Assembly: GCF_001426745.1 (NCBI RefSeq)
Contig: NZ_LMFI01000003.1
Coordinates: forward strand, 95,837-159,836
Source: Nocardioides sp. Root140
GTDB taxonomy: Bacteria > Actinomycetota > Actinomycetes > Propionibacteriales > Nocardioidaceae
DNA: 64,000 nt
Direction: 5' to 3'
Shown here: positions 28,490 to 35,337 of the stretch, one piece after another
Layout: the number at the start of each line of letters is the position of its first letter
Numbering within the stretch: position 1 is the first letter of the stretch
Translations under genes and position numbers: made by a program
Notes under the pieces: model-generated
The model's database searches: none
What the model saw: only the letters and a program-made list of their open reading frames with translations
What the model was told of the DNA's origin: nothing

Positions 28490-28780
28490 ATGACTGCCTA
28501 CTGGATCAGCACCTACAACGAGATCCTCGACCCCGCGAAGATGGCCGCGTATGCCGAGATCGCCGGGCCCGTCCTGACCGAGGCCGGCGGCACGTACCTG
28601 GCCCGGGACCAGTCCGCGCACACCTGGGAGGACGCACGAGAGGGCCGCGTGGTGATTATCCGCTTCGACTCGGTCGAGCAGGCGGTGGAGGCGCACGACA
28701 GTCCGGCGTACCAGGCAGCGTTGGCAGCGCTCGACGGTGGCGTGCGGCGCGAGGTGCGGATCGTCCCCGGGGTCGAGTGA
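28490..28780 (+). CDS. DUF1330 domain protein
   Basis: The protein has 96 residues. AYWISTYNEILDPAKMAAYAEIAGPVLTEAGGTYLARD and VVIIRFDSVEQAVEAHDSPAYQAAL are characteristic of the ferredoxin-like DUF1330 family (dimeric alpha-beta barrel). Function is not established. CAGGAGG precedes the ATG. It lies 115 bp upstream of jetA, and is probably not part of that operon. Confidence 0.85.
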   Translation: MTAYWISTYNEILDPAKMAAYAEIAGPVLTEAGGTYLARDQSAHTWEDAREGRVVIIRFDSVEQAVEAHDSPAYQAALAALDGGVRREVRIVPGVE

Positions 28781-28895: not shown

Positions 28896-30419
28896 ATGAG
28901 CGAGATCGCCGGTGAGCTGGCGCGGGTCAAGGGGGCGTTCAGCCAGCCCACCCTGACCCTGCTCCACCAGCGCCAGGCGCCCGTGGTGATCACGATCTTC
29001 CGGGCCGCGTTCGGACGCAACAACAAGCCGATCCCCACCGCCCGCCTGCATGCCCAGGTCGAGGAGCACCTCGCCCAGATCCGCCTGACCGGCGAGTCCC
29101 TGGTGCCCGAGGGGAGCGGACGCGACCTCTGCCAGAAGTGGATGCGCGGTCAGTGGCTGGTGCGCGCGCTCGACGAACGCGGTCACGAGGTCTACACGCT
29201 CACCTCCCACGCGCAGCAGGCACTCGAGCTGGTCAAGGGCCTGGCCCGCGACCGGGCCACGCTGAGCGAGCATCGCATCGCCACCATCCTCGGCACGGTC
29301 CGGCGGTTCAACGCCGAGGCCAACCCCGATCGCACCGCGCGGGTCTCCCTGCTCAACGAGGAGATCGCCAGGCTCAGCGCCGAGCGCGACCGGCTCGTCG
29401 ACGGCGCAGAGATGGTCAGCGCCACCGAGGACTACATGCTCGAGGGGTTCACCGAGCTCCAGTCGTTGATCTCCGCGCTGCCGAGCGACTTCGCCCGGGT
29501 CGAGGAGCGGTTCGCCGGCATCCGTGCCGAGATCCTGGCCGCCTTCCGCGCCGAGGACCGTCCACCCGGCGACGTGATCGACGACTACCTGGCCCGCGCC
29601 GACGCACTGATGACTGCAACCCACGAGGGCCGGGCCTTCGAGGGCGCCTTCGGGCTGCTCCGCGACGACGCCCTGGTTGCCCAGCTCCGCGAAGACCTCA
29701 CCGCGCTGCTCGAGCACCCGATCTCCGACCGGATCCTCGCCGAGTCCGACCGGGCCGAGCTGCGCGGCACCGTCAAGCTGGTCCGCGACGGGCTCGACCG
29801 GGTGCTCACCCAGCGGTCGAGGGTGACCGCGACGCTCAAGGAATACATCGTCTCCCACGACGCCGCCCGTGACCGCGAGCTCGAGCAGACGCTGCGCCAG
29901 GTGGAGTCCGAGCTGATGACCTGGATGGCCACCACCGGCCCGCGGGCCACCCACGACGTGCCACTGCTGCCGTTGCGCGCCGGCATCGACCACCTGCGCG
30001 AGCGCTTCCACGACCCGGCCGACGACCGGCTGCCCGACCCGATCGAGCCGGTCGACCCCGACGACGCGAGGTCGCCGTCGCTGGCCGAGCTGATGGCCCA
30101 GGGCGGGCCGCAGCTGCCGTCGCTGCGGCAGCGCCTCGACGACGCACTCTCCGACCTGCTGCCCGCAGCCACTCTCGGCGAGGTCTTCGACCGGCTCGAG
30201 CCCTCGTTGCGCCGACCGGTGGAGATCTACGGACTGCTCCACCTGGCCGCCGACCGCGGCTGGACCACCGACGACGTCGTCGAGACCTGGGCCACGGTCC
30301 GCCACGACGGGTCGCGGCGAACCTTCGCCGTGCCGCGGATGCCGCTGCCCGACCCTGACCTCGACGCACACCGCACCCAGCAGAGCCGCACCCAGCAGAA
30401 GAGTGAGACCCCCGCATGA
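28896..30419 (+). CDS. jetA: Wadjet JetA subunit, kleisin-like (DUF3375)
   Basis: The protein has 507 residues. The N-terminus (ELARVKGAFSQPTLTLLHQRQAPVVITIFRAAFG) and the long helical middle match DUF3375/JetA, the MukF-like kleisin of Wadjet and MksF complexes. TGGAGG lies 8 bases upstream of the ATG. The 3' end overlaps jetB by 4 bp (ATGA). In Wadjet, JetA bridges the JetC heads and binds JetB. The sequence looks intact, with no frameshift. Confidence 0.85.
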   Translation: MSEIAGELARVKGAFSQPTLTLLHQRQAPVVITIFRAAFGRNNKPIPTARLHAQVEEHLAQIRLTGESLVPEGSGRDLCQKWMRGQWLVRALDERGHEVYTLTSHAQQALELVKGLARDRATLSEHRIATILGTVRRFNAEANPDRTARVSLLNEEIARLSAERDRLVDGAEMVSATEDYMLEGFTELQSLISALPSDFARVEERFAGIRAEILAAFRAEDRPPGDVIDDYLARADALMTATHEGRAFEGAFGLLRDDALVAQLREDLTALLEHPISDRILAESDRAELRGTVKLVRDGLDRVLTQRSRVTATLKEYIVSHDAARDRELEQTLRQVESELMTWMATTGPRATHDVPLLPLRAGIDHLRERFHDPADDRLPDPIEPVDPDDARSPSLAELMAQGGPQLPSLRQRLDDALSDLLPAATLGEVFDRLEPSLRRPVEIYGLLHLAADRGWTTDDVVETWATVRHDGSRRTFAVPRMPLPDPDLDAHRTQQSRTQQKSETPA

Positions 30420-31210
30420 GCACCGACGTCGACCTCAACCGGCCGGAGCCGGAAGACGCGCTCGAACCGGACGACGCCCTCGAGCGCGACCCGGCGTACG
30501 ACGACTCGGTCTCGCTCTTCGAGGGCGACGAAGGCGGTCTCGAGCACTCCCAACGCCAGGCCCTCGTCGTGCTGCTCAAGCAGCGGTTCATCAGCGCCCG
30601 CACCCACCCACGTGACTGGCAGGTGCTGGTCGAGCACGAGCGGGTGCTCCGCTCACGCCTCAACGACGTGTTCCTCGACCTGATGGTCGACCGCGAGCGC
30701 GAGGTCGCCTGGAAGCGCCAGGCCGTCCCCGAGACCGGCGGCCGGTTCCCGACCCTGCTCCACGACACCGGCTGGTCGCGCGAGGAGACGCTGGTGCTGG
30801 TGCACGTGCGCGACCGGCTGCGCGCCGGGCTGGCCAGTGGCGACACCCGGGTCTTCGTCGACCGCGACGACATCCTCGACTACGTGGCCAGCTTCCGACC
30901 CGCGCACGCCACCGACGAGTCGGGCGACACCAAGCGCGCCCAGAACGCCGTCCAGAGCGTCGTGAAGTCCGGTCTCCTGATCGGTGCCACCGGTGACGAA
31001 CGGTTCGAGATCAGCGAGGCGGTGGAGCCGCTGCTCCCGCTCGAGCTGCTCCAGGAGCTCCTGTCCGCGCTCCGCTCCGCCAACGACACCACCCCAGAAC
31101 CCGAGGAGCCCGCCGACCTCTTCGACGAGGACGGTGCTGACACAGACGGTGCCGGCAAGGACCGTGCCGACAAGGACGGGGCCGACGCCGACGAGGAGCG
31201 CGACGCATGA
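30416..31210 (+). CDS. jetB: Wadjet JetB subunit, KITE-like (DUF4194)
   Basis: The protein has 264 residues. ALVVLLKQRFISARTHPRDWQVLVEHERVLRSRLNDVFLDLMVDREREVAWKRQA matches DUF4194/JetB, the winged-helix (MukE-like) subunit. The N-terminus (30 residues) and the C-terminal 45 residues are acidic and low-complexity (DED, GADTDGAGKD-like repeats), probably disordered. It overlaps both neighbours by 4 bp, so the A-B-C subunits are translationally coupled. Confidence 0.85.
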   Translation: MSTDVDLNRPEPEDALEPDDALERDPAYDDSVSLFEGDEGGLEHSQRQALVVLLKQRFISARTHPRDWQVLVEHERVLRSRLNDVFLDLMVDREREVAWKRQAVPETGGRFPTLLHDTGWSREETLVLVHVRDRLRAGLASGDTRVFVDRDDILDYVASFRPAHATDESGDTKRAQNAVQSVVKSGLLIGATGDERFEISEAVEPLLPLELLQELLSALRSANDTTPEPEEPADLFDEDGADTDGAGKDRADKDGADADEERDA

Positions 31211-34200
31211 GCACCGACCAGATCAACGAGCACGAGCTCGGCGGCGACGAGGTCGACGAGGCCTCCGACGGGCTCTTCGCCCGACAGGTGGTCGACACCC
31301 CGGCCGACGACACCGTCCAGTGGCGGGCGGCCCTTCTCCAGCTGGTCAACTGGGGAGGCTTCGGCGGCCTGACGACGGTGCCGCTGCGCGGTGACACCAC
31401 GATGATCTCCGGGGCCTCCGGCGTCGGGAAGAGCACGATCCTCGACGCCTACACCGCGCTGATGATGCCCTCCGACACCAAGTTCAACGGCGCCTCCAAC
31501 GACGCGGTCAGCGGGCGCGCCCGCGGTGTCGGCCAGCGCAACCTGCTCTCCTACCTTCGTGGCGCCGTCGACGTGATCGACGACCCCAGGACCGGCCGAC
31601 CGGTCGAGAAGCTGCTGCGCGGCAAGGGCGCCGACACCTGGGGTGCGGTCGCGATGACGTTCGTCAACGACCAGGGCGGCCGGTTCACCGCGCTGCGCAC
31701 CTACTACGTGCCGCGTCGCGCCACCCGGTCGAGCGACGTGCAGATGCAGCTGGCCACCCACGAGGGGGCGCTCACCCTCGACACCCTCGAGGTCGCCGTC
31801 CCCGAGCGCTTCCACGCCAACACCTTGAAGAAGCTCCTCCCCGGCATTCGCGTGCACCGCACCTACGCCGAGTTCTCCGCGGTGCTGCACGCCCGCCTCG
31901 GCATCGGCGCGAACGGCGACGGTGCCAAGGCTCTGCGCCTGCTCTCACGCATCCAGGCCGGCAACCAGGTGCGCAGCGTCGACGAGCTCTACAAGGAGAT
32001 GGTGCTCGAGCGCCCCGCGACGTACGCCGCCGCCGACCGCGCCATCGAGCACTTCGACGACCTCGACGCGGCGTACTCCGCGATGCGCACCGAGGAGGAG
32101 AAGCTCGACCTCCTCGGCCCGATCACCGAGCTGCACGCGCGCAAGGTCGCGGCAACCCGCCGCCAGTCCCAGCTCGACTCCTACGGCGTCACCCTCGGCG
32201 GCGACACCCCGCTGCGACTGTGGCTCCTGCGCACTCACCATCGCCTGCTCGAGGCGGCGGTCGCCGCCAACCGCGACGCGCGTACGACGAACGCGGACGA
32301 CCTGTCCCAGACGTCGTCGGCCGAGGCCGCCCTGGTCGCCGACCTCGAGAACGCCAAGGACTCCCACCGCGCCGCCGGTGGAACCACGCTCCAGAACCTC
32401 GCCCTGTCGATCGAGCAGGAGCAGGTGGTCCGCGACGACCGCGCCGGCCGGCGCGCCGTGTTGCAGGAGCGCCTGCTGCCGCTGGTCGACGTGGCCGACC
32501 CGCACGCAGTCAGCGTCGAGACCGCGCTCGAGTCCGATGCCGGCTTCGGCGCCCTGCAGCAGCAGGCCCGTGAGTGGCTGGCCGGCTGGCAGGACCAGGC
32601 GGCCAGCCTCAAGCGTGAGCGTGACATCGCCCGCGACGGACTCTTCCCGGTCAAGCAGCGGCAGGCCGAGCTGCGCGAGGAGCGTGCCTCGCTGCAGAGT
32701 CGGGCCGGCCGCATGCCGTCCCGCATGCATGAGATGCGTGAAGAGGTGGCCCTGGCCAGCGGGCTCGGCATCGACGAGCTCCCGTTCGTGGCCGAGCTGG
32801 TCGACGTCGCCCCCGACGAGTCGCGGTGGCGCACCGCGGTCGAGACCGTCCTCGGCGGCACCGCCCGCCTCATGCTGGTGCCGATCGACCGGCTCAAGGA
32901 CTTCTCCTCGGCCATCGACGGGCTCCGGCTGCGTGGCCGGCTGACCTTCGAGGGCGTCGAGCTCGACCTGCCCGACACCGGTCCGGCCGACCCCGAGCGC
33001 GTCGCCGGCAAGCTGCTCTTCAAGGACTCGCCGTTCTCCGGCTGGGTGCAGGCCCACCTCGGTGAGCCGTCGCGCAACGCCCTGTGCGTCGAGACCGCCG
33101 ACGGCCTCGCCGGTGGCGGCTTCCGGGTGACTCTCGCCGGCCAGACCCGCAACGGTCGTCGCGGTGCCCACGGACGCGCCGACACCCGCAACATCATCGG
33201 TTTCTCCAACGAGGACGCGCTCTCCGAGATCGACTCCGAGCTCGCCGCCCTTGAGGAGAAGCTGCAGGCCTTCGACGCCGACGTGGCCGAGCTCGACCGC
33301 CAGGGCCGCGTGCTGGAGCAGGTCCGCACGGCCTACGACACGATCCGCGCGGCGCGCTTCGACGACATCGACGTCGCGGGCAGCGACGAGCGCATTGCCG
33401 AGCTCGGTCATCGGCGAGCCGAGATCCTCCGCGCCGACGACAAGCTGCACGTGCTCCAGGGCCAGATCGACGACCTGTCCGACCGACTGGAGCAGGCCCG
33501 CAAGAAGCGGTTCGTGCTCGAGGAGCGCCACAAGCGCCTGGCCGCGGAGCATGCCGAGCTGGTCGACTCCGAAGACCTGGTCAACGACCGCCTCGATGTG
33601 ATGGACCGCAACGGCACGGTGACGCTCACCGAGGAGCAGGACGCGGCGTTGGCCGCCGACTTCGCCGCGGCCGCGACGCCCGACGACCCCGACGACCTCG
33701 ACCGCTTCCCGGTCACGTCGCAGCGGTTGGCCGAGCGACTGCGTGACGCGGTGGGGGAGACCGAGACCGAGATCAACCGGGTCGACGACGAGCTCGGTGC
33801 GATCTTCCGGATGTACAAGCTCAAGTGGGAGTCGCCGAACCTCGCCGCGACCCCCGACTCGTACGCCGACTACGCCCGCATCCTCGACGACATCCGCGGC
33901 ACCGGCCTGGCCCAACGGCGCACCGAGTGGCGCCGCCGCCTCACCGAGTGGAGTGGCCAGGACCTCGTGCCGCTCGTGGGCGCGATGGCCGCCTCCATCG
34001 AGGAGATCGAGGACCGGCTCGAGCCGATCAACGCGATCCTGCGGCGGCTGGAGTTCGGGGCGTCCGGCGACAGACTGCGCATCCGACTGCGGCGGCTCTC
34101 ACCCGCCCACGTGCAGGTCTTCATGAAGGACCTCCGCATGCTCTCCTCCGGTGTGACGGCCGAGCCGGACGAGGCCGACCTCGAGAAGCGGTTCCTCGAC

Positions 34201-34689
34201 CTGAGCCGGTTCATGCGCCAGCTGCGCAGGCCGGTCCCGGGTGGCGATCCGGTCACCGACCGCGACCGCCTCCTCGACGTACGCCGGCACGTGGAGATCA
34301 GCGCCGAGCGCTATGACCACCACACCGGCGAGCTGCGGGCGACGTACCGCACGCTGGGGGAGAAGAGCGGCGGCGAGAGCCAGGAGCTGGTCGCGTTCAT
34401 CGTCGGCTCGGCGCTGCGGTTCCGGCTCGGCGACGAGATGCGCTCGCGGCCCCGGTTCGCGCCGGTCTTCCTCGACGAGGGCTTCGTGAAGGCCGACTCC
34501 GAGTTCGCCGGCCGCGCCGTCCAGGCGTGGAAGGGCCTCGGCTTCCAGCTGATCATCGGTGTGCCCCTCGACAAGGTCACCGGTCTCGAACCGCACATGG
34601 ACGAGCTGTTGGCGATCACCAAGAGCACCACGACCTACCAGTCGTGGATCACTCCGATCACCGACGCGGAGCAGACTCCCGCTGGTTGA
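31207..34689 (+). CDS. jetC: Wadjet JetC subunit, SMC-like ATPase
   Basis: The protein has 1160 residues. Walker A is GASGVGKST (69-77), followed by long coiled-coil arms and a small central hinge. The signature motif LGEKSGGESQ (near 1050) and Walker B PVFLDEGF (D1090, E1091) close the ATPase head. These are the MukB/SMC features of JetC, the DNA-translocating motor of Wadjet. All catalytic motifs are intact. The last codons (PAG and TGA) coincide with the start of a dispersed intergenic repeat. No jetD follows. Confidence 0.9.
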   Translation: MSTDQINEHELGGDEVDEASDGLFARQVVDTPADDTVQWRAALLQLVNWGGFGGLTTVPLRGDTTMISGASGVGKSTILDAYTALMMPSDTKFNGASNDAVSGRARGVGQRNLLSYLRGAVDVIDDPRTGRPVEKLLRGKGADTWGAVAMTFVNDQGGRFTALRTYYVPRRATRSSDVQMQLATHEGALTLDTLEVAVPERFHANTLKKLLPGIRVHRTYAEFSAVLHARLGIGANGDGAKALRLLSRIQAGNQVRSVDELYKEMVLERPATYAAADRAIEHFDDLDAAYSAMRTEEEKLDLLGPITELHARKVAATRRQSQLDSYGVTLGGDTPLRLWLLRTHHRLLEAAVAANRDARTTNADDLSQTSSAEAALVADLENAKDSHRAAGGTTLQNLALSIEQEQVVRDDRAGRRAVLQERLLPLVDVADPHAVSVETALESDAGFGALQQQAREWLAGWQDQAASLKRERDIARDGLFPVKQRQAELREERASLQSRAGRMPSRMHEMREEVALASGLGIDELPFVAELVDVAPDESRWRTAVETVLGGTARLMLVPIDRLKDFSSAIDGLRLRGRLTFEGVELDLPDTGPADPERVAGKLLFKDSPFSGWVQAHLGEPSRNALCVETADGLAGGGFRVTLAGQTRNGRRGAHGRADTRNIIGFSNEDALSEIDSELAALEEKLQAFDADVAELDRQGRVLEQVRTAYDTIRAARFDDIDVAGSDERIAELGHRRAEILRADDKLHVLQGQIDDLSDRLEQARKKRFVLEERHKRLAAEHAELVDSEDLVNDRLDVMDRNGTVTLTEEQDAALAADFAAAATPDDPDDLDRFPVTSQRLAERLRDAVGETETEINRVDDELGAIFRMYKLKWESPNLAATPDSYADYARILDDIRGTGLAQRRTEWRRRLTEWSGQDLVPLVGAMAASIEEIEDRLEPINAILRRLEFGASGDRLRIRLRRLSPAHVQVFMKDLRMLSSGVTAEPDEADLEKRFLDLSRFMRQLRRPVPGGDPVTDRDRLLDVRRHVEISAERYDHHTGELRATYRTLGEKSGGESQELVAFIVGSALRFRLGDEMRSRPRFAPVFLDEGFVKADSEFAGRAVQAWKGLGFQLIIGVPLDKVTGLEPHMDELLAITKSTTTYQSWITPITDAEQTPAG

Positions 34690-34744
34690 GGCGCGCCACA
34701 CCCTCGTTGGTCGAGGAGGCGAGCCAGCGCCGCTTCGAACCACC
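34680..34744. repeat. Dispersed palindromic repeat at the 3' end of jetC
   Basis: CGCTGGTTGAG (34680-34690) includes the jetC stop, and a second copy of the element runs from 34705 to 34744 (CGTTGGTCGAGGAGGCGAG...CGCTTCGAACC). This matches, in opposite orientation, the repeat cluster at 1688-1850. The jetC terminal codons therefore lie inside repeat DNA, at the place where jetD is normally found. Confidence 0.65.
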
Positions 34745-34798
34745 CGACCCCGAGGTGCGGTGCCGTCGGCGAGGACGACCGTCCAGTACGCTTCGAAC

Positions 34799-35179
34799 AT
34801 GTGTTCGGAGTCGAGGTGCGACGAACAGGCGTTCCTGCCGTTCGACCCGCCACCGACGGCACCGGCGTCCGCCTCGACGACCTCGGCCAAGCGCCGGGGC
34901 GACGGAGCCATCCGTCACCTCATGGTCGACGACGCGCTTGCCTCCCTGGGCAGGCCGGCCGGCACGGAGCTCCTGCTGTCCCCGTGCCGTACGCCGCGCC
35001 GCGGCCAGGTCGTCCTCGCCAGCGACGGGAGCAGCCTGCGGATCGGCATCTTCGACCTGCATCTTGGCCGCGCGGCACTGCGCACCGACCACGGCACGGT
35101 CTGGATCGGTCGCGCGTCGCAGGTGATCGGCGCGGTCACGGAGGCGGCCGCGCCACTGACCGGCATGCCGGGTTCGTGA
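34799..35179 (+). CDS. Small hypothetical protein (possible S24-like fold)
   Basis: The protein has 126 residues, starting MCSESRCDEQAF. The second half (GTELLLSPCRTPRRGQVVLASDG...GRAALRTDHGTVWIGRASQVIGAV) recalls the beta-rich pattern of S24/LexA-type C-terminal domains, with an RRGQVVLA turn and a closing hydrophobic IGAVT strand. No convincing catalytic Ser-Lys pair is visible. It is not similar to JetD (too short; no DUF3322/DUF2220 motifs seen). Its coding status is likely but not certain. Confidence 0.5.
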   Translation: MCSESRCDEQAFLPFDPPPTAPASASTTSAKRRGDGAIRHLMVDDALASLGRPAGTELLLSPCRTPRRGQVVLASDGSSLRIGIFDLHLGRAALRTDHGTVWIGRASQVIGAVTEAAAPLTGMPGS

Positions 35180-35337
35180 GGGCCACGGACTGGGGCCGGA
35201 GGCGACTGAACCGGCAACTGTCGGGTACCGCCGGACCTTCACGAGCGCGCCGCGACACGCCGACAGAACGCGATCGAGCAGCATCTGTGCTTGTGTTGAG
35301 AAGGTCAAATTCGACGCAACCGGGGTGATTCGCAGGC

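What the first reader, a model, noticed from the sequence alone, without database searches (positions are those of the whole stretch)
28896..34689. Intact Wadjet-type jetA-jetB-jetC operon without jetD
The three subunits overlap by 4 bp and all ATPase motifs of the SMC-like JetC are intact (Walker A 69-77, signature near 1050, D1090/E1091). Canonical Wadjet operons encode a fourth subunit, JetD (DUF3322/DUF2220), which cuts plasmid DNA. No such gene follows; the next gene is a 126-residue unrelated protein and then a betaine importer. Either JetD is encoded elsewhere, has been lost so that the system cannot cut, or the complex serves as an MksBEF-like condensin for the chromosome.
Basis: partly seen in the sequence, partly recalled or inferred. 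Interest (0 to 1): 0.75.

Follow-up and report, generated by a model that had tools for sequence, protein, structure and literature searches.

The report
Plasmid-defence motor that lost its nuclease
A bacterium of the genus Nocardioides carries the three-part DNA motor of a plasmid-destroying defence system but not its DNA-cutting part, and many related species keep the same cutter-less motor intact, so it probably does a useful job on DNA without cutting it.

Summary
JetA (28896-30419), JetB (30416-31210) and JetC (31207-34689) are intact type I Wadjet (MksFEB-like) subunits with 4-bp overlaps. Searches found no JetD in the host genome (99.99% complete, 17 contigs). In the JetC clade of this locus 87 of 93 tree tips lack JetD and 6 have it straight after jetC. 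Those six JetDs form one clade, so JetD was probably ancestral and lost several times (9-19 losses if never regained). JetABC did not decay: JetC dN/dS has a median near 0.11 in close JetD-less pairs, ATPase motifs are kept in 87 of 87 rows (three by eye), and 638 of 670 alignment columns conserved in JetD-bearing relatives stay conserved. All 168 same-genus genomes of the draw have ScpB, so JetABC is additional to Smc-ScpAB. In a draw of 394 genomes of the class, 27 of 30 lower-scoring JetA loci outside the genus also lack a nearby JetD, against 1 of 23 high-scoring ones. Best reading: a non-cutting, MksBEF-like SMC complex; its substrate is undecided. Loss of JetD has been proposed for Pseudomonas MksBEF, so this is a new variant of a known kind. 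New here are the scale, the selection evidence and a conserved LF motif in the JetB tail.

The parts
28896..30419 (+). jetA (mksF-like kleisin, DUF3375), 507 aa
   Evidence: solved JetA 8dk1 matches at 1.4e-18
30416..31210 (+). jetB (mksE-like KITE protein, DUF4194), 264 aa; overlaps jetA by 4 bp
   Evidence: weak match to solved JetB 8as8, E 0.033; predicted fold mean pLDDT 80
30515..30535 (+). JetB N-terminal motif LFEGDEG (residues 34-40), in a stretch predicted with low confidence; pattern kept in 87 of 87 JetD-less main-clade JetBs
   Evidence: possible counterpart of the JetD-contacting IFDR motif named in PMC10586767 (equivalence not shown)
31115..31123 (+). JetB C-terminal tail motif DLF (residues 234-236); an LF occurs in the tail of 83 of 87 JetD-less and 5 of 5 JetD-bearing main-clade JetBs examined
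31207..34689 (+). jetC (mksB-like SMC ATPase), 1160 aa; overlaps jetB by 4 bp; Walker A 69-77, signature 1054-1057, Walker B DE 1090-1091
34690..34800 (+). stretch where jetD starts in JetD-bearing relatives; no JetD and no recognisable JetD remnant here or within 5 kb downstream

Best explanation
This is the SMC motor (kleisin JetA, KITE JetB, ATPase JetC) of a type I Wadjet/MksBEFG lineage that lost the nuclease JetD/MksG and is kept as a stand-alone complex. By homology it would form a dimer of SMC dimers that binds DNA and extrudes loops using ATP. Without JetD it should not cut. I infer that it acts as an accessory, MksBEF-like condensin next to Smc-ScpAB, organising the chromosome and/or compacting small circular DNA without cleavage. 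Shown here: intact subunits, no JetD found, loss within a clade, purifying selection, coexistence with ScpB. Inferred: loop extrusion, no cutting, and the substrate.
For: Intact subunits. No JetD found in the host. 87 of 93 main-clade tips lack JetD, 6 have it straight after jetC. The six JetDs are one clade (100/100), which points to an ancestral JetD; 19 losses on the tree if never regained, 13 or 9 when weak branches are collapsed. JetD-less L171 and JetD-bearing L175 and L178 have JetC 93% identical and share neighbour families. JetC dN/dS in 16 close JetD-less pairs 0.03-0.15 (13 pairs of the main clade, 3 of other JetD-less groups), in 2 JetD-bearing pairs 0.12-0.14. Columns conserved in at least 12 of 13 JetD-bearing rows and kept at 80% or more in JetD-less rows: JetA 154 of 158, JetB 76 of 81, JetC 408 of 431. 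ScpB in all 168 same-genus genomes of the draw (my count). In P. [quoted passage not shown]
Against: No experiment. Only 112 of 168 same-genus genomes have a JetC relative, and 13 of 32 strong JetC clades conflict with the species tree, which is more like an accessory or defence module than a housekeeping condensin. In C. glutamicum the related MksB affected plasmids and not the chromosome (PMC10123090, passages). The JetB stretch that may contact JetD is kept in all 87 JetD-less rows, which could mean that some partner still binds there.
Confidence: 0.6

Rival explanations
1. JetABC still drives plasmid cleavage, but recruits an unrelated nuclease or topoisomerase encoded elsewhere, through the conserved JetB N-terminal motif and/or the C-terminal LF tail motif.
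For: JetB LFEGDEG pattern in 87 of 87 JetD-less rows, in a stretch predicted with low confidence; LF in the variable JetB tail of 83 of 87, 70 of 73 tails tested against a mean of 5.1 after shuffling.
Against: No gene family was consistently next to jetABC in the flanks examined; no JetD-like protein found in the genome. A similar N-terminal stretch is also kept in the far JetD-less clade L217-L224, so it may be needed inside the complex. Genome-wide co-occurrence of other nucleases was not tested.
Confidence: 0.17
2. A non-cutting anti-plasmid complex: JetABC extrudes small circles completely and silences, compacts or mis-segregates them, as I recall being discussed for eukaryotic Smc5/6 on extrachromosomal circles.
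For: Patchy distribution and partly horizontal spread within the genus; EptC expression in M. smegmatis is reported to interfere with segregation of pAL5000 plasmids (PMC6135046, passage); an anti-viral role of Smc5/6 is named in the abstract of PMC10586767 (listing).
Against: M. smegmatis EptABCD is described as JetABCD-homologous, so that phenotype may need the nuclease (PMC12287153, passages). All four subunits were needed to suppress plasmid transformation in B. subtilis (PMC10586767, passage).
Confidence: 0.18
3. A decaying relic: JetD was lost recently and JetABC is on its way out.
For: A few loci are damaged: JetC in two frames in L191 and L207, JetA in two frames in JetD-bearing L185.
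Against: JetC dN/dS median near 0.11 in close JetD-less pairs, ATPase motifs in 87 of 87, no recognisable JetD remnant within 5 kb in 140 JetD-less loci (best tblastn E 0.19).
Confidence: 0.03

Closest known systems
Type I Wadjet (JetABCD) / MksBEFG (C. glutamicum), EptABCD (M. smegmatis)
   Same: Order kleisin-KITE-SMC, overlapping genes, same Pfam and PADLOC families; JetD-bearing members exist inside the same JetC clade
   Different: No JetD/MksG found in the operon or genome
MksBEF of Pseudomonas aeruginosa (condensin without nuclease, as described in PMC10586767)
   Same: Three-subunit MukBEF-like SMC beside Smc-ScpAB (ScpB; Pseudomonas: passages)
   Different: Only a sub-threshold MksE hit, 13.5 bits against a cut-off of 27; function not tested; here JetD loss looks as if it happened within the genus
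MukBEF of Escherichia coli
   Same: Remote relation in the SMC head: MukB N-terminal 18.8 bits, below the cut-off of 23
   Different: Does not replace Smc-ScpAB here (ScpB present)

Membership tests
Type I Wadjet anti-plasmid system | JetA kleisin with DUF3375 | tested here: met
   375 bits over residues 15-483; PDLC00464 5e-194
Type I Wadjet anti-plasmid system | JetB KITE with DUF4194 | tested here: met
   123 bits; PDLC00497 2e-137
Type I Wadjet anti-plasmid system | JetC SMC with intact ATPase motifs | tested here: met
   PDLC00517 1478 bits; motifs; solved JetC 8dk2 2e-46
Type I Wadjet anti-plasmid system | JetD nuclease (DUF3322 + DUF2220) | tested here: not met
   0 matches in the host genome; none in the window after jetC
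Type I Wadjet anti-plasmid system | Cleaves small circular DNA | not testable with these tools
   needs reconstitution or a plasmid assay
MksBEF (condensin without nuclease) | Kleisin-KITE-SMC operon without nuclease | tested here: met
MksBEF (condensin without nuclease) | Coexists with Smc-ScpAB | tested here: met
   ScpB match in host (3e-50) and in all 168 same-genus genomes of the draw; Smc and ScpA themselves were not searched
MksBEF (condensin without nuclease) | MksE family match over cut-off (PF21980) | tested here: not met
   13.5 bits, cut-off 27
MksBEF (condensin without nuclease) | Role in chromosome organisation | not testable with these tools
   needs Hi-C, microscopy or genetics
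MukBEF | MukB N-terminal domain over cut-off; replaces Smc-ScpAB | tested here: not met
   18.8 bits, cut-off 23; ScpB present

The most novel reading that the evidence does not exclude
In actinomycetes JetD loss is a repeated route by which a plasmid-cutting SMC becomes a non-cutting complex, and in Nocardioides JetABC gained a second docking site, the LF motif in the JetB tail, that ties it to a replication or other host protein. The DNA sliding clamp is one candidate: the host's own DnaE carries QDSLFGG, which I recall as clamp-motif-like. The complex could then act on freshly replicated DNA.
Probability: 0.12. Interest if true: 0.75.

Novelty: new variant of a known kind. Interest (0 to 1): 0.52.

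Why it matters
Wadjet is understood as a loop-extruding sensor plus a nuclease. A clade of many species that keeps the sensor under selection after losing the nuclease, with a JetD-less and a JetD-bearing locus whose JetCs are 93% identical, is a natural experiment on what the motor does alone. It bears directly on the proposal that condensins such as MksBEF and MukBEF arose from a defence system (PMC10586767, section 7). It also warns that annotation by JetABC genes alone would call genomes plasmid-defended that may not be.

Tried and rejected
A conserved fourth gene next to jetABC: clustering of frames of 85 aa or more within 2.5 kb upstream and 4 kb downstream in 118 loci found none; its largest family looks like a frame antisense to the start of jetA. 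Genes shorter than 85 aa were not covered. The 126-aa downstream protein as new partner: a small family (25) lies beside jetABC in 4 loci, on either side; I saw the sequence of one of them, L111, and its likeness to the window's protein is by eye. Single copy in the host, no family hits. Not supported.

JetA/B/C sites that change with JetD loss: 4, 5 and 23 columns conserved in JetD-bearing rows were below 80% in JetD-less rows. For the five of them printed with their sisters, the nearest JetD-less rows share the JetD-bearing state wholly (3 columns) or in part (2 columns), so this looks like phylogeny. A repeat behind jetC as deletion hot spot: 14 of 101 JetD-less loci against a background of 0.34 per 250 bp, no enrichment. 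Promoter and terminator scan: 0 and 0; RNA fold of the downstream gap z -0.52. Plasmid carriage: 8 of 72,556 plasmid records match JetC, all under 60% identity; one with annotation has JetD, another has no annotation, the other six were not opened.

Papers: the MukB/sliding-clamp search was seen as a listing and gave nothing used; passages of PMC4255302 and PMC10512200 gave nothing used. PMC3179180 (MksBEF families), PMC4169951 (EptC) and the Wadjet paper I looked for under a recalled DOI are not held, so what they say about actinobacterial operons without the nuclease is unchecked.
Full report
What is there. jetA, jetB and jetC are intact, in one direction, with two 4-bp overlaps. Family searches put them in type I Wadjet/MksFEB: DUF3375, DUF4194, SbcC_Walker_B and AAA_29, PADLOC JetA1, JetB1, JetC1 near full length, solved JetC and JetA chains; JetB matches solved JetB only weakly, E 0.033. 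A DUF1330 gene precedes the operon, a 126-aa orphan follows.

JetD was not found elsewhere in this genome. The window lies in a 5.43-Mb, 17-contig, 99.99% complete genome. PF09983 and PF11795 gave 0 matches, with C. glutamicum ringing as control. A relative's JetD gave 0 matches at E<=10 (no positive control in that call). DUF2399 gave one hit below cut-off, E 0.26. A JetD in an assembly gap cannot be excluded, but the place after jetC is covered.

The host. Of 47 named loci with a related JetC, 38 are called Nocardioides; those at 61% identity or more are all called so except Pimelobacter simplex and one Propionibacteriales MAG. I therefore take the genus (g1) to be Nocardioides.

Relatives. 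In a draw of 294 genomes of the family, 120 have a JetC match and 36 a PF09983 match. I count 168 same-genus genomes in the listing; 112 of these have JetC. I fetched 120 flanked JetC loci; further places, mostly at 25-29% identity, were left out. JetC was found in 120, JetB in 119 and JetA in 118 of 120: jetA lies beyond the contig end in L111, JetA and JetB were not found with the window's proteins in far locus L227, and jetC runs off the contig in L198. JetD was sought with a profile built from the loci. That profile is noisy, since some seed frames were wrong or cut, but its 18 positives among these 120 loci all agree with PF09983 places. The main clade has 93 tips in the tree: 92 unnamed-genome or window rows plus L062, a named 3.2-kb MAG contig with about 656 residues of JetC. 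Three damaged or cut loci (L191, L198, L207) were left out. 87 tips have no JetD, 6 have it directly after jetC (L062, L166, L175, L178, L182, L185). Two JetD-less rows have less than 5 kb behind jetC (L128 646 bases, L189 4.3 kb), enough to see a jetD start. Seven loci at 50-55% identity from other genera (L055, L063, L064, L067, L072, L074, L076) and L201 all have JetD. Five loci at 53-54% (L202-L206) and a far clade at 35-38% (L217-L224, 8 of 8) lack it. Of 90 main-clade JetD-less genomes (damaged loci and host included), 12 have a PF09983 match elsewhere: 10 of these have a second JetC place, 2 only a fragment; 78 have none.

History. The six main-clade JetDs form one clade (100/100), and within it the four JetDs of L175, L178, L182 and L185 stand together, as their JetCs do with JetD-less L171 and L172 among them. 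All six keep the EN and GDMD motifs of the nuclease domain (motif names recalled). That points to JetD present at the base and lost several times: 19 losses on the FastTree topology if never regained, 13 or 9 when branches under 80 or 95 support are collapsed. The count leans on that tree, for which the program warns of long branches, and several columns in which the L160-L185 group shares the outgroup's letter suggest that the group may branch deeper, which would lower it. Regain by transfer cannot be ruled out; without the no-regain assumption the whole tree needs 7 changes, 5 forced by starred branches. JetD-less L171 and JetD-bearing L175 and L178 have JetC 93% identical and share flanking families 14, 3 and 17: the same place with and without the gene. 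JetC of L175 and L182 are 91% identical while their JetDs are 57%, so JetD either evolves fast or was swapped. No JetD remnant was recognised within 5 kb behind jetC in 140 JetD-less loci, a set in which named and unnamed records partly repeat the same species (best E 0.19).

Not decaying. NG86 dN/dS of JetC is 0.03-0.15 (median 0.11) in 16 close JetD-less pairs, 13 of the main clade and 3 of other JetD-less groups, and 0.12-0.14 in 2 JetD-bearing pairs; two more distant JetD-less pairs gave 0.22 and 0.28. A strict pattern finds Walker A in 85, the signature in 87 and Walker B in 86 of 87 rows; the three exceptions carry ordinary variants by eye. Columns conserved in at least 12 of 13 JetD-bearing rows stay at 80% or more in JetD-less rows for 154 of 158 (JetA, 86 rows), 76 of 81 (JetB, 87 rows) and 408 of 431 (JetC, 87 rows). 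L062 was not among these rows. I see no eroded JetD surface.

JetB motifs. A review says that JetD contacts an IFDR motif at the JetB N-terminus (PMC10586767, section 7). At a comparable place the JetBs here have [LIV][FW][ED]GD[ED]G, in 87 of 87 JetD-less rows; whether it is the equivalent of IFDR is not shown. AlphaFold gives that stretch low confidence (block pLDDT about 60). The variable C-terminal tail of main-clade JetB carries a short LF motif, often DLF[DE]: 83 of 87 JetD-less and 5 of 5 JetD-bearing rows (71 of 87 under a stricter pattern), 0 of 8 JetD-bearing outgroup rows, 0 of 9 and 0 of 8 in far groups; the single hit among five 54% rows lies in the folded domain. Of 73 tails that my anchor pattern found (of 92), 70 have LF against a mean of 5.1 and a maximum of 12 in 1000 shuffles. 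That ignores relatedness, but most of the rest of the tail does not align. The host DnaE has QDSLFGG, which I recall as resembling a clamp-binding motif; a clamp link is a guess.

Vertical or mobile. Against a tree of four proteins around scpB from 60 genomes (one of the four found in 55; 1214 columns; damaged L207 included), JetC distances correlate (r 0.53, maximum of 999 permutations 0.22), but only 21 of 57 JetC clades are in the species tree and 13 of 32 strong JetC clades conflict with strong species clades. The module is partly inherited, partly transferred. ScpB is in 287 of 294 genomes and in all 168 of the genus, so JetABC is an additional SMC complex; Smc and ScpA themselves were not searched.

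Wider. In 394 genomes of the class (a draw that includes genomes of the earlier one) I compared the 66 DUF3375 places of 294 bits or more with the 30 strongest PF09983 places. At 425 bits or more, 22 of 23 loci have PF09983 within 9 kb on the same strand; below, 3 of 30 loci outside the genus and 2 of 13 inside do. The 27 without lie in 6 families and 10 genera. The line at 425 was drawn after seeing the list, contig ends were not checked, and weaker or fragmentary places were left out. JetD-less type I-like loci are thus common in other families of the class, not special to this genome.

Literature. Searches for Wadjet with Nocardioides (2 papers, listing only), for MksBEF without MksG (30 papers, 20 listed) and for lost or absent JetD (11 papers listed) show, in their listings and the passages I read, no report of a JetD-less Nocardioides lineage. 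The review PMC10586767 states that P. [quoted passage not shown] PMC7485682 describes MksBEF beside SMC in chromosome organisation and clusters at the replication site (abstract and passages). C. glutamicum MksBEFG acts on plasmids (PMC10123090 and PMC7083940, passages). The library lacks most subscription papers, so 'not in print' is limited to these searches.

Verdict. The feature is real and the gene calls are right. It is not a complete Wadjet system, because the defining nuclease was looked for and not found. It works most likely like an MksBEF without nuclease: an ATP-driven SMC complex that is kept by selection and does not cut. Its substrate and partners remain open.

Noticed in passing
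window 34801-35181: 126-aa protein without family hits, single copy in the host; a family of small frames, one of which (L111) looks like it, lies behind jetC in L111 and L146 and before jetA in L108 and L142.
   Followed up: partly
L217-L224 (G259, G249, G247, G283, G263, G229, G253, G243): A second, far JetC clade (35-38% identity) in genomes of 5.0-6.3 Mb of the same genus, 8 of 8 without JetD, with neighbour families shared by most of the eight.
   Followed up: partly
L175 and L182: JetC 91% identical but JetD only 57%: fast JetD evolution or replacement of JetD in JetD-bearing loci.
   Followed up: no
L185 (G168), L191 (G284), L207 (G290): Split frames: JetA in two pieces in JetD-bearing L185, JetC in two pieces in L191 and L207.
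   Followed up: no
G288:C2:3532710, G146:C1:3665106, G260:C35:191377: Short PF09983 fragments away from any JetC place listed, perhaps remnants of other Wadjet systems.
   Followed up: no
L294 (NZ_CP069241.1, linear plasmid of Rhodococcus sp.): A complete JetABCD operon with JetD annotated on a 599-kb linear plasmid.
   Followed up: no
window 28490-28780: DUF1330 gene directly upstream of jetA on the same strand.
   Followed up: no
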